Of a stretch of DNA of 41,685 nucleotides, positions 19,203 to 35,485 are shown piece by piece. The DNA is taken from IMG/VR virus record IMGVR_UViG_3300005548_000005, positions 1-41,685 of that record; one strand, written 5' to 3'. The stretch's first letter is position 1. Every line of letters begins with the position of its first letter. The translations under genes were made by a program, and so were the position numbers. The notes under the pieces are model-generated. The model had not been told where the DNA came from. It saw nothing but the letters and a program-made list of their open reading frames with translations, and made no database searches. The stretch is from a virus.

Positions 19203-19221
19203 AGGTTTCACTGTGAAACCT
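19203..19221. promoter_or_regulatory. parS-like palindrome
   Basis: AGGTTTCAC-T-GTGAAACCT is a perfect 9+9 palindrome with one central base. Its core GTTTCAC...GTGAAAC equals the two half-sites of the canonical chromosomal ParB site, with one extra base in the middle. It directly abuts the -35 of the HicA-like promoter. The phage encodes two ParB-like proteins, so it may be their site, or an operator for the local HTH protein. Confidence 0.5.
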
Positions 19222-19262
19222 TGTCAGTTGACAAGGGATGCGGTAGCATTGCACTTGTCAAC
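19220..19262 (+). promoter_or_regulatory. Promoter with CTTGTCA operator boxes for the HicA-like operon
   Basis: A likely promoter is TTGTCA (19222-19227), 16-base spacer, TAGCAT (19244-19249). Three copies of one box surround it: CTTGTCA at 19220-19226, its inverse TGACAAG at 19229-19235, and CTTGTCAAC at 19254-19262. The last two form a perfect 9-base inverted repeat around the -10. This fits autorepression by the HTH partner, as in most toxin-antitoxin operons. An AGGAGGTGA SD follows. Confidence 0.65.
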
Positions 19263-19281
19263 GAGAGGAGGTGAAGGCAAG

Positions 19282-19479
19282 ATGGACAAGGATCTGAAGA
19301 AGATCGTCAAGGCGCTCAAGGCCCAGGGCTACGAGACCGAGATGACCCGGAAGGGACACCTGATGGTGTACCGCGACGGTCACCTGGTCGCCGTTCTCCC
19401 CGGCAACGTGGGCGACTGGCGGGCCCTGAAGAACGCGATCGCTGCGCTCCGACGGGTCGGGTTCCGGTGGCCGCCCTAG
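19282..19479 (+). CDS. HicA-like toxin
   Basis: A 65-residue protein with the HicA dsRBD-like plan: N-terminal helix (LKKIVKALKAQGYE), then beta strands with the KGHLMVYRDGHLVAVLPG core, whose Gly-His pair matches the GSH active region of HicA mRNA interferases, then a C-terminal helix (ALKNAIAALRRVGF). ATG with perfect AGGAGGTGA. It would cut or bind translated mRNA. It is one of only six or so rightward genes and has its own promoter, typical of a self-contained module. Confidence 0.68.
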   Translation: MDKDLKKIVKALKAQGYETEMTRKGHLMVYRDGHLVAVLPGNVGDWRALKNAIAALRRVGFRWPP

Positions 19480-19491
19480 GCCGACGGACAA

Positions 19492-19550
19492 GAGGACCGG
19501 GGCGCGGAAATCGCCCCGGTCCTCGGGACCCAGTGTGACCCGAGGACCGG
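19492..19550 (+). promoter_or_regulatory. Mutually exclusive hairpins between toxin-like and HTH genes
   Basis: Arm 1 GAGGACCGGGGCG (19492-19504) pairs with arm 2 CGCCCCGGTCCTC (19512-19524), 13 perfect pairs. Most of arm 2 also pairs with arm 3: CCGGTCCTCGGG (19516-19527) with CCCGAGGACCGG (19539-19550), 12 perfect pairs. Both cannot form together. The SD of the HTH gene starts four bases after arm 3. A ribosome finishing the toxin-like gene would cover arm 1 and favour the 2:3 form. There is no T-tract, so translational control is more likely than termination. Confidence 0.6.
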
Positions 19551-19566: not shown

Positions 19567-20034
19567 ATGCAGATGTACCACGCGAACGTCGAGGTCGACG
19601 ACCGCACACCGATCACCCGCGACAACTCCACCGAGGTCGACGCCTGGATGGAGGTGCTGCGCCAGTACCACGGATCCCCGGGCACCAGCATCCGCGGGTT
19701 CCGTGAGGCCGGCCTGTACGTGCCCGCCGAGAACCTCGCCCAGGCGACGACGTCGGCGACCGCGATCGTGAGCTCGCTGTTCGGCGCCGAGGCGATCGCC
19801 ATCGAGATCATGACCGAGAAGGAGTTCGACACCCGCGAGGGCTGGATGCCGATGCCCGAGATCGTGTCGGTCAGCGAGGCCGCCGAGCTGCTCGGCGTCA
19901 CCCGGCAGGCGGTGCAGGACCGGATCCGGCGCGGCACGCTGCAGGCCGAGAAGGTCGGCGACACCTACGTGATCCCGCGCGGCCAGCTCCCGGCGCAGCT
20001 GCTCGACTCGAACCCGGAGCCCGCCGACAAGTGA
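19567..20034 (+). CDS. HTH protein, probable antitoxin partner of the HicA-like gene
   Basis: A 155-residue protein. Residues about 1-95 form an unrecognised alpha/beta domain (YHANVEVDDRTPITRDNS, then ATTSATAIVSSLFG). Residues about 98-145 are an excisionase/MerR-type HTH (EIVSVSEAAELLGVTRQAV, then RRGTLQAEKVGDTYVIPRGQL). AAAGGAAG SD. HicB antitoxins combine an RNase-H-like domain and a DNA-binding end; this has the same plan but the N-domain is not clearly HicB. It likely neutralises the toxin and represses the promoter. Pairing is inferred from operon structure. Confidence 0.6.
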   Translation: MQMYHANVEVDDRTPITRDNSTEVDAWMEVLRQYHGSPGTSIRGFREAGLYVPAENLAQATTSATAIVSSLFGAEAIAIEIMTEKEFDTREGWMPMPEIVSVSEAAELLGVTRQAVQDRIRRGTLQAEKVGDTYVIPRGQLPAQLLDSNPEPADK

Positions 20035-32837: not shown

Positions 32838-33001
32838 GGCTGACCGCCCGTCGTGGCCGGGGCCTGCTGCATGGTGTCGCCGAGGTGGTGCAGGCCGGTG
32901 GCCATGTCGTGGAGGACGAGCACGATCGCCAGCACGCACAGGAGACCGAGCGCGGTGGCCATCACCATCGAGGCCCGGGAGTCACCGCGGCGGGCGGCCA
33001 T
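32834..33001 (-). CDS. Small single-pass membrane protein
   Basis: A 55-residue protein with one hydrophobic helix (MVMATALGLLCVLAIVLVLH) after a short basic start. ATG in an ATGA overlap with the HTH gene. Second gene of the early unit, so expressed early; membrane exclusion is possible but unproven. Confidence 0.55.
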   Translation of the reverse strand: MAARRGDSRASMVMATALGLLCVLAIVLVLHDMATGLHHLGDTMQQAPATTGGQP

Positions 33002-33204
33002 CACGTACCACGCTCGATGCGCTCGACGTCCTCGAGGCGGTACCGGCGGTGACCCGAGGGGAGCTTGACCACGGGGAGGCGCCCGTCCCAGGTGCGCAGC
33101 GTCGAGGGGGAGATCCCGAGCCGACGGGCGACCTCGCGAGGAGTCAGCAGCGGCCGCGGCTCTGGTGCGGTAACTGCGGATCCATGCGATTTTCGCGGGC
33201 TCAT
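33001..33204 (-). CDS. MerR-type HTH protein, first early gene (Xis/Cro-like candidate)
   Basis: A 67-residue protein: LLTPREVARRLGISPSTLRTWDG is the HTH, then LPVVKLPSGHRRYRLEDVERI, the wing and a helix, as in excisionases and BldC-like regulators. It is transcribed divergently from the repressor, the place of Cro and Xis in similar phages. Its ATG has no SD and lies just after a TACGGT -10, so the mRNA is probably near leaderless. Confidence 0.72.
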   Translation of the reverse strand: MSPRKSHGSAVTAPEPRPLLTPREVARRLGISPSTLRTWDGRLPVVKLPSGHRRYRLEDVERIERGT

Positions 33205-33240: not shown

Positions 33241-33270
33241 AGATTTTGCCTAGCGTGTTGCGCAAAATCT
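33241..33270. promoter_or_regulatory. Operator-like inverted repeat between repressor and early genes
   Basis: AGATTTTGC (33241-33249) and GCAAAATCT (33262-33270) form a perfect 9-base inverted repeat, in an AT-rich patch of an otherwise GC-rich genome. It lies in the 110-base gap between the divergent repressor and early genes. This is the natural binding site for the repressor dimer. Confidence 0.7.
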
Positions 33271-33314: not shown

Positions 33315-33794
33315 ATGACGACTGAGGGCGCTCCGGCGGTACCGACCGCCGATGCGATCGTGGGCGAGAAGGTCTTCCACTGGATGTGGCGGATGAAGAT
33401 CTCGCAGACCGAGATGGCGAGGCACCTCGGGATCTCGCAGACCAATGTCAGCCGCCGACTTCGCGGCGAGACCGGCTGGACGATCGACGACATCATCACC
33501 GCGGCCCGTGTCCTACGGCTGTCGCCGGGCGACCTGCTCCCGGGCGACGACTACGAGGGTCGTCCGGGTGGTGGTGGTACTCAGTACGCCATCAGGGACT
33601 CGAACCCCGAACCCGCTGATTACGGATCAGCGGACGCCACGATCCTGCAGATGCCGCGTCGCCCGCGGCCGATCAGCGGCGAGCGGGCAGCGTCCACACA
33701 GACTGGCTGGGGGGCCACTGTGGTCCGCCTCGAGGCACGTTCCTCGAGGCGGACCACCACTTCTTCGGCCTGGTGCGACCAGGCCAGCTCGTGA
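33315..33794 (+). CDS. Immunity repressor, virus form (attP within gene)
   Basis: A 159-residue protein. Residues about 18-76 are a Cro/CI-type HTH (KISQTEMARHLGISQTNVSR, then TIDDIITAARVLRLSPGDLL). From residue 92 the reading frame runs through a tRNA-like attP core (AIRDSNPEPAD), so the last 57 residues (103-159) come from phage DNA beyond the core. Integration would replace that tail with host sequence, here probably an immediate stop after codon 102. The short form would be the active prophage repressor. No -LAA-like tag is visible on the virus form. Confidence 0.82.
   Translation: MTTEGAPAVPTADAIVGEKVFHWMWRMKISQTEMARHLGISQTNVSRRLRGETGWTIDDIITAARVLRLSPGDLLPGDDYEGRPGGGGTQYAIRDSNPEPADYGSADATILQMPRRPRPISGERAASTQTGWGATVVRLEARSSRRTTTSSAWCDQASS
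33587..33633 (+). other. attP core (tRNA 3'-half match) inside the repressor gene
   Basis: Reverse-complemented, 33587-33622 reads as a tRNA from position 37 to 71: anticodon-stem 3' arm TCAGC, variable loop GGGTT, T-arm CGGGG-TTCGAGT-CCCTG with correct pairing, and acceptor 3' strand ATGGCG. The anticodon loop itself is diverged (C at position 33), so it is not a working tRNA. CCGCTGAT and ATCAGCGG (33613-33633) form an inverted pair around TACGG, a plausible integrase core site. From memory it best fits actinobacterial tRNA-Lys. Confidence 0.78.
33720..33757 (+). terminator. Perfect 16-bp hairpin in the repressor tail
   Basis: Stem 33720-33735 pairs without mismatch to 33742-33757 around a six-base loop (cacgtt). 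The stem contains CTCGAGG/CCTCGAG. It is followed by CCACTTCTT, only partly T-rich. It lies beyond the attP core, between the truncated repressor and int, so it could stop repressor transcripts before int, or be an integrase/host-factor site. Confidence 0.55.
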
Positions 33795-33832: not shown

Positions 33833-34024
33833 ATGACCGCCACCGCCCTCCGCCTGATCGACACCACCGCCACCACCCCCGAGCACGAGCAGACTCCCGT
33901 CGTCGACGCCGGTGTCGCGGCCGGCCTGATCCACACCTGGGCGGCGGTGCAGACCACGTTGCTCGAGCGGCAGATCCGCCGGTCCGGTGCGCTGCAGCGG
34001 TACGTCCGCGGCTCGGTGAAGTGA
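33833..34024 (+). CDS. Small protein between repressor and integrase
   Basis: A 63-residue protein from ATG with AGGAG eight bases upstream. The C-terminal half is helical and basic (AGLIHTWAAVQTTLLERQIRRSG). No family recognised. Its position between repressor and int suggests a lysogeny function, such as an integration co-factor. Confidence 0.55.
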   Translation: MTATALRLIDTTATTPEHEQTPVVDAGVAAGLIHTWAAVQTTLLERQIRRSGALQRYVRGSVK

Positions 34025-34098: not shown

Positions 34099-34917
34099 AT
34101 GAACTCGACGGATCGGGCCGTTGAGAGCTGGGCCAGCTGGATGCGTGCCGCGGGGCGAGCCCCCGGCACGATCGCGTTACGAACGGGGCACGTCCGCAAG
34201 GTCTTCCGGGACCTGGGCGTGCAGCAGCTCAACGACGTCACGACCGAGCAGCTGGTCGAGTTCTTGGCCACGCAGCGATGGCGGCCGAACACGCGCCGCT
34301 CCTACCGGGCTTCCCTGCGGGTCTTCTACGACTGGGCCCGAGCCGCCGGCTACGTCGAGGCCTCGCCGGTCGAGCGGGTGCCGGCCCCGAAGATCCCGCG
34401 ATCGCGGCCGCGGCCGCTGCCCGAGGACAACTACCGGCTCGCGCTGCAGGTCGCCCGGTACGAGCCGGCGCTGCGGATCGCGATCCGCCTCGGTGGGCAG
34501 TGCGGTCTACGGCGCGCGGAGCTCTCCCGGGTCCACCGCGACGACGTCTTCGAGGACCTGATCGGGCATGCGCTGCGGGTGGTCGGGAAGGGGGGCCACG
34601 AACGGCTCGTGCCGCTGCCCGAGGACCTGGCCCACGATCTGCTCGCGCGGCCCCAGGGTTGGCTGTTCCCGTCGCCGCGGCTCCACGGTCGGCCGGCGAC
34701 ACCGCAGGCCGTGGGGCGGTGGATCTCGTCGCTCCTGGGGCCCGGGTTCACCACCCACTCGCTGCGGCACCGGTGCGGGACGATGGCGCTCGAGCACAAC
34801 GGCGGGAACCTCCGCGCTGTCCAGGAGCTCCTCGGCCACGCGAAGCCCGAGACCACTGCGATCTACACCCTGGTCCGGGAGGAGACGATCCGCGCCGCCA
34901 TGGAAGGTGCGGCTTGA
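34099..34917 (+). CDS. int: Tyrosine integrase
   Basis: A 272-residue protein. Residues about 5-92 are the SAM-like core-binding domain. The catalytic domain carries Arg138 (GLRRAEL), Lys164 (VGKGGHERLVPL), His220 and Arg223 (HSLR), His247 (LLGHAKPETT) and nucleophile Tyr256. There is no N-terminal arm-binding domain, so it is XerC-sized. It ends -MEGAA, a small-residue end like ssrA-type tags. It would recombine attP, 0.5 kb upstream, with a host tRNA gene. Confidence 0.93.
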   Translation: MNSTDRAVESWASWMRAAGRAPGTIALRTGHVRKVFRDLGVQQLNDVTTEQLVEFLATQRWRPNTRRSYRASLRVFYDWARAAGYVEASPVERVPAPKIPRSRPRPLPEDNYRLALQVARYEPALRIAIRLGGQCGLRRAELSRVHRDDVFEDLIGHALRVVGKGGHERLVPLPEDLAHDLLARPQGWLFPSPRLHGRPATPQAVGRWISSLLGPGFTTHSLRHRCGTMALEHNGGNLRAVQELLGHAKPETTAIYTLVREETIRAAMEGAA

Positions 34918-35453: not shown

Positions 35454-35485
35454 ACCGCCCCACCCTGTGGTCAGGGTGGGGCGGT
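35454..35485 (-). terminator. Intrinsic terminator of the late unit
   Basis: ACCGCCCCACCCTG (35454-35467) pairs perfectly with CAGGGTGGGGCGGT (35472-35485) around the tetraloop TGGT. On the minus strand it is followed by TTTCGTC. It lies 21 bases after the last late gene and so ends the leftward late transcript of nearly 25 kb. Confidence 0.85.

What the first reader, a model, noticed from the sequence alone, without database searches (positions are those of the whole stretch)
33587..33633. attP core lies inside the repressor gene: integration-dependent immunity
A 36-base tRNA 3'-half match sits within the coding frame of the CI-like repressor, with the integrase gene just downstream. In mycobacteriophages such as BPs, Brujita and Charlie, the same arrangement makes the virus-form repressor inactive and the integrated, shortened form active. 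The sizes here (159 versus about 102 residues) are close to the 136 and 103 I recall for BPs. Integration itself would be the lysogeny switch.
Basis: partly seen in the sequence, partly recalled or inferred. Interest (0 to 1): 0.9.

Follow-up and report, generated by a model that had tools for sequence, protein, structure and literature searches.

The report
Phage switch thrown by chromosomal integration
This phage, probably of an actinobacterium, keeps its integration site inside its own repressor gene, so inserting into a host tRNA-Lys gene should trim the repressor from 159 to 102 residues and switch on lysogeny; this is a known design (integration-dependent immunity), here with an oddly missing stop codon in the virus-form repressor.

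Summary
Confirmed, and of a known kind. A 36-bp stretch (33587-33622) inside the Cro/C1-type repressor ORF (33315-33794) is identical to the antisense 3' half of actinobacterial tRNA-Lys(CTT), not tRNA-Thr as ARAGORN calls it. Identity ends inside a stop codon that the host tRNA supplies: the phage reads GAT TAC, the host GAT TAA. Integration should therefore give a 102-residue repressor ending NPEPAD. The same core sits in repressors of Gordonia cluster CW phages, for which integration-dependent immunity is published. I found proviruses at this same tRNA-Lys whose repressors stop exactly there; for one, joining attL and attR restores a longer repressor ending -AA. The divergent Cro/Xis-like gene, an armless integrase ending -EGAA and an operator-like inverted repeat all fit. 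One published mark is absent: the 159-residue virus form ends -QASS, not -AA. Its coding-like tail reaches -GERAA (residues 125-126) but no stop follows, and the frame runs on through non-coding-like DNA with a 16-bp perfect hairpin. Tagless repressors have precedents in M. abscessus prophages, and the closest relative here ends -RAS. The host, a lysogen of this very phage, and the activities of the two forms remain undetermined.

The parts
33315..33794 (+). repressor (rep), virus form as read: 159 aa, Cro/C1-type HTH, ends -DQASS
   Evidence: ORF; phrog_2328 transcriptional repressor E 3.5e-18, Pfam HTH_26 and HTH_3 above cut-off
33315..33620 (+). part of rep expected in the prophage: 102 aa, ends NPEPAD, followed by host TAA
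   Evidence: host tRNA-Lys(CTT) antisense reads GAT TAA; relatives truncated at the same codon
33587..33622 (-). attP common core, identical to the 3' half of tRNA-Lys(CTT); strand given is that of the tRNA
33621..33692 (+). coding-like part of the virus-form tail, ends -GERAA; the AA codons are 33687-33692 and no stop follows
   Evidence: codon log-odds fits the frame (which split one codon earlier); similar to the tail of L107, which ends -GGAA*
33693..33791 (+). last 33 codons of the 159-aa form; not coding-like
   Evidence: codon signal lost; no similarity to other tails beyond chance
33720..33757 (+). hairpin, 16 perfect base pairs, loop 6, terminator-like but without a T run
   Evidence: only three perfect hairpins of 13 bp or more in the window, 0 expected in 10 simulated sequences
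33767..33785 (+). second hairpin, 8 base pairs, just before the rep stop
33833..34024 (+). small ORF of 63 aa between rep and int, unknown function, strongly coding-like
   Evidence: no PHROG or Pfam match
34099..34917 (+). tyrosine integrase, 272 aa, no recognised arm-binding domain, ends -EGAA
33001..33204 (-). divergent Cro/Xis-like HTH gene (MerR/HTH_17 type), 67 aa
   Evidence: 55% identical over 49 aa to the same-position gene of L129
33242..33269 (.). inverted repeat GATTTTGC-N12-GCAAAATC between rep and cro, candidate operator
   Evidence: half-site occurs only here in the window, 0.13 expected

Best explanation
The cassette is an integration-dependent immunity switch. Shown from sequence: attP lies in the repressor ORF, the integrase lies downstream, and a Cro/Xis-like gene diverges. 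Int should recombine the core with attB in the host's tRNA-Lys(CTT) gene. At the rep-bearing junction the tRNA is rebuilt, and its antisense anticodon loop supplies TAA, so the repressor ends at residue 102 (inferred for this phage, seen in relatives at the same site). The short form is expected to be the stable, active one that represses the divergent early genes, and the virus form to be weaker because of its C-terminal extension (inferred from BPs). Int, ending -EGAA, is expected to be unstable, so host proteolysis would set the lysogeny frequency. How the virus-form repressor is inactivated is open, because its likely tag (-GERAA) is not terminal in this sequence.
For: Core inside rep in frame. 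Same core in eight Gordonia phage repressors, all ending -AA, and in L107 and L108; published as integration-dependent at tRNA-Lys for GMA5, GRU3, Jeanie and McGonagall (PMC5559632). Proviruses L126, L127, L128, G003 and G008 with rep stopped at NPEPAD-TAA in tRNA-Lys(CTT). G008 attL and attR rejoin to a repressor ending -LLLPAA. Same Rep family in prophage form (L118, L119) and phage form ending -HAA (L120). Closest relative L129 with syntenic cro, rep (core inside) and int. In each phage-form relative compared, the attP sequence departs from the host at the stop codon.
Against: The virus form ends -QASS, not -AA. A terminator-like hairpin lies between rep and int, which fits poorly with simple co-transcription of the two. 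No lysogen of this phage, no host, no activity data.
Confidence: 0.85

Rival explanations
1. attP lies in rep, but the virus form is now about as stable and active as the prophage form: the stop after -GERAA was lost, the tag is buried, and immunity is largely uncoupled from integration.
For: No terminal -AA; the tail reads on for 33 non-coding-like codons. In BPs a stabilised long form raises lysogeny (PMC4557955).
Against: Other integration-dependent repressors without -AA are known and presumed to be degraded by other signals (PMC8092301); the closest relative ends -RAS with a stop that overlaps the next gene.
Confidence: 0.1
2. The 159-residue length is an error of the metagenomic assembly: the true virus form ends at or near -GERAA and the system is fully standard.
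For: Coding signal and homology both end at about -GERAA; the expected extension would then be about 24 residues, close to the published 20-35.
Against: Both other frames are also open through this stretch, so a one-base indel would not bring in a nearby stop, and no single substitution turns the next codon (TCC) into one. Reads were not available.
Confidence: 0.25
3. The hairpin inside the ORF makes the virus-form mRNA non-stop, and the host's tmRNA adds a real SsrA tag; integration supplies a stop upstream and frees the short form.
For: Hairpin of 16 perfect pairs before the stop; the window is the only one of 28 repressor tails with strong structure (z -4.7). E. coli arfA is controlled this way (PMC3989581). 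The two other strong hairpins of the window lie between genes just after stop codons, so this type looks like a terminator of this phage.
Against: One case only: the other repressors without a terminal A (L129, Taheera, L131) have no structured tail. No T run after the stem.
Confidence: 0.07
4. A complete phage-encoded tRNA-Thr gene overlaps rep.
For: ARAGORN call.
Against: The 3' half is tRNA-Lys(CTT) and the 5' half is unrelated phage DNA that is part of the rep tail.
Confidence: 0.01

Closest known systems
Gordonia cluster CW phages (GMA5, GRU3, McGonagall, Jeanie) and the similar EricDab, Emperor, SallySpecial
   Same: Same tRNA-Lys core inside rep and in the same frame, integrase of about 270-300 aa (41-48% identical), rep then int on one strand with a divergent regulator; GMA5 also has an extra ORF between rep and int
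   Different: Their virus-form repressors end -AA and have no strong hairpin in the tail; repressor N-terminal parts are of other families; genomes are about 16-18 kb
IMG/VR phage L129 (3300031228_000019)
   Same: Cro 55%, Rep 42% including the core, Int 53% identical; repressor ends -RAS rather than -AA
   Different: Several ORFs between rep and int; no strong hairpin in the tail; core diverges from the window's at a few bases
Mycobacteriophage BPs (cluster G)
   Same: attP inside rep, int downstream, divergent cro; a single host base next to the core makes the stop; short form 103 aa (PMC4557955, PMC9262239)
   Different: Virus form 136 aa with an ssrA-like tag; tRNA-Arg site; not compared by sequence here
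Mycobacterium abscessus prophages MabC, MabN, MabO, MabH
   Same: Integration-dependent systems whose virus-form repressors lack an ssrA-like tag (PMC8092301)
   Different: Their integrases also lack the tag, while here Int ends -AA; sequences not compared

Membership tests
Integration-dependent immunity systems | attP common core inside the repressor coding sequence | tested here: met
   Core 33587-33622 within ORF 33315-33794
Integration-dependent immunity systems | attB overlaps a host tRNA gene that is rebuilt on integration | tested here: met
   Core is the 3' half of tRNA-Lys(CTT); relatives at this site keep an intact tRNA. For this phage position 72 would become U from the phage flank, so the host tRNA should be checked
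Integration-dependent immunity systems | Prophage repressor shorter, through a stop at or near attL | tested here: met
   Predicted TAA after residue 102; seen in proviruses of relatives, not in a lysogen of this phage
Integration-dependent immunity systems | Virus-form repressor ends in an ssrA-like -AA tag (typical, not universal: PMC8092301) | tested here: not met
   Ends -DQASS; -GERAA is internal at residues 125-126
Integration-dependent immunity systems | Integrase ends in an ssrA-like tag | tested here: met
   Int ends -EGAA
Integration-dependent immunity systems | Integrase and att sites without arm-type binding | tested here: met
   272-aa Int starts directly with the core-binding part; no arm-binding domain matched. 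Arm sites themselves not tested by binding
Integration-dependent immunity systems | Divergent Cro-like gene with an operator in between | tested here: met
   HTH gene 33001-33204 and inverted repeat 33242-33269; function inferred
Integration-dependent immunity systems | Short form confers immunity, long form does not | not testable with these tools
   Needs a host and expression assays

The most novel reading that the evidence does not exclude
The virus-form repressor is removed by trans-translation instead of an encoded tag: the in-frame hairpin at 33720-33757 ends or cuts the mRNA before the stop codon, so the host's tmRNA adds the real SsrA tag, and integration supplies an upstream stop that lets the short form escape. 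This would be a new way to build the switch.
Probability: 0.07. Interest if true: 0.75.

Novelty: new member of a known kind. Interest (0 to 1): 0.32.

Why it matters
It extends a lysogeny switch that works without a lambda-like decision circuit to another phage lineage, and shows one tRNA-Lys(CTT) site shared by many unrelated repressors read through the same core. If the missing tag is real, the phage is a natural test of whether degradation of the long repressor is needed for the switch.

Tried and rejected
ARAGORN's tRNA-Thr: rejected, the match is tRNA-Lys(CTT). Relatives cannot be drawn for a virus record, and no actinobacterial genome handle could be obtained. The trans-translation idea as a general substitute for the tag: other repressors without a terminal A show no structured tail, so it rests on one case. 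Terminase search in viral contigs gave one 81% relative whose contig does not reach the immunity cassette. The 2013 Mol Cell paper and the 2013 commentary on this system are not held; their content is cited through later papers.

Full report
Observation. The repressor ORF 33315-33794 (159 aa) contains at 33587-33622 a 36-bp block identical to the antisense strand of the 3' half of tRNA-Lys(CTT). ARAGORN calls the place tRNA-Thr(cgt), but the 5' half it uses is phage DNA; intact copies elsewhere read as Lys. Megablast of 20001-41685 against 50,697 phage records finds this core and nothing else, in 14 records, all but one of them Gordonia phages, mostly inside genes annotated as repressors or DNA-binding proteins.

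What integration would do. The repressor frame crosses the core as ...YAIRDSNPEPAD. In the host tRNA the next codon is TAA, formed by the antisense anticodon loop (GAT TAA GAG); in the phage it is TAC. The 36-bp identity ends after the first two bases of that codon, so a single host base makes the stop and the prophage repressor would have 102 residues. The published BPs case works the same way, a host base turning the third position of a codon next to the core into a stop (PMC9262239). The BPs sizes are 136 and 103 (PMC4557955).

Evidence from relatives. Eight Gordonia phages carry the core inside a repressor that ends -AA; six read it in the window's frame, while Coeur and Rahul use another frame, in which the host sequence offers TGA. 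Pope et al. already list a tRNA-Lys attB for GMA5, GRU3, McGonagall and Jeanie, and assign integration-dependent immunity to cluster CW (PMC5559632). IMG/VR supplied lysogens. L126, L127, L128, G003 and G008 have repressors that stop at NPEPAD-TAA; L127 and G008 retain the whole tRNA-Lys(CTT). G004 shows the same with NPKPAD. In G008 both junctions are present, and joining them gives a longer repressor ending -LLLPAA. Within the window's own Rep family, L118 and L119 end at a host stop within tRNA-Lys(TTT), while L120, with an almost identical repressor, is in phage form and ends -DHAA. The closest relative, L129, shares Cro (55%), Rep (42% over 108 aa, including the core) and Int (53%).

Other parts. 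A Cro/Xis-like HTH gene diverges at 33001-33204. The inverted repeat GATTTTGC-N12-GCAAAATC (33242-33269) lies in the gap, and its half-site occurs nowhere else in the window. Int (272 aa) keeps the residues invariant among its relatives, including the catalytic ones, has no recognised arm-binding domain and ends -EGAA.

The anomaly. The virus form ends -DQASS. Of 28 virus-form repressor tails compared, 24 end in A (21 in AA); the exceptions are the window, L129 (-AS), Taheera (-AS) and L131 (-PK). The tail splits in two. Up to -GERAA (to 33692) codon usage fits the frame, and the peptide resembles the L107 tail, which ends -GGAA* (shuffle p 0.0005 before correction for 20 comparisons). Beyond that the codon signal is lost, and there are two hairpins, one of 16 perfect base pairs. 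The only other perfect hairpins of 13 bp or more in the window (19492-19524, 35454-35485) lie between genes shortly after stop codons, so this type looks like a terminator of this phage. I infer that the gene once ended near -GERAA and that the stop is missing, either in the phage or in the assembly.

How it works, with steps marked. Shown: gene order, attP inside rep, the truncation that follows from the host tRNA sequence, and the same truncation in relatives. Inferred: activity of the short form, instability of Int, weakness of the long form. Published integration-dependent systems without -AA exist in M. abscessus prophages, and their authors presume other degradation signals (PMC8092301). 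So the missing tag does not remove this phage from the kind, but the step that inactivates the long form is unexplained here. The most novel reading left open is trans-translation of a non-stop rep mRNA, as in E. coli arfA (PMC3989581); it rests on one case and I give it 7%.

Verdict. A sound finding, and a new member of a known kind with one unexplained departure. The host is unknown. Position 72 of the rebuilt tRNA would be U, from the phage flank (33586), so either the host tRNA differs there or the lysogen would carry a G-U pair.

Noticed in passing
window 19567-20034 (+), 20005-20024: An HTH gene on the + strand, in a region otherwise read from the - strand, ends ...LDSNPEPADK; the DNA matches the tRNA-Lys T-arm core at 18 of 20 bases. 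It could be a relic of an older attachment site. A HicA-like ORF (19213-19479) and a 13-bp perfect hairpin precede it.
   Followed up: partly
window 33585-33587: The phage base at tRNA position 72 is T where the intact tRNA-Lys copies seen have C; L129 has the same T. The host tRNA may differ, or the lysogen's tRNA would have a G-U pair.
   Followed up: partly
L005 2281 and 2358 (Gordonia phage GRU3): GRU3 carries two copies of the core 77 bp apart, both followed by the same tail ending -LLSLVTAA.
   Followed up: no
L101 (NZ_CP063192.1, Corynebacterium heidelbergense phiDSM104638): A 16.9-kb circular 'plasmid' has a near copy of the tRNA-Lys core next to a tyrosine recombinase gene and looks like a small cluster CW-like phage.
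   Followed up: no
L016 (MT835744.1): An unannotated 'Bacteriophage sp.' fecal contig holds an intact tRNA-Lys(CTT) and may be bacterial DNA or carry a flank.
   Followed up: no
window, 11 sites including 33030, 33728 and 33742: The palindrome CCTCGAGG occurs 11 times, 2.6 expected, no shuffle reaching 11; three sites are at the immunity cassette, two of them in the hairpin.
   Followed up: no
L129 1968-2160: The repressor tail of L129 contains a second stretch resembling tRNA antisense (CCCCGAACCTTCCGATAACAG) downstream of the core.
   Followed up: no
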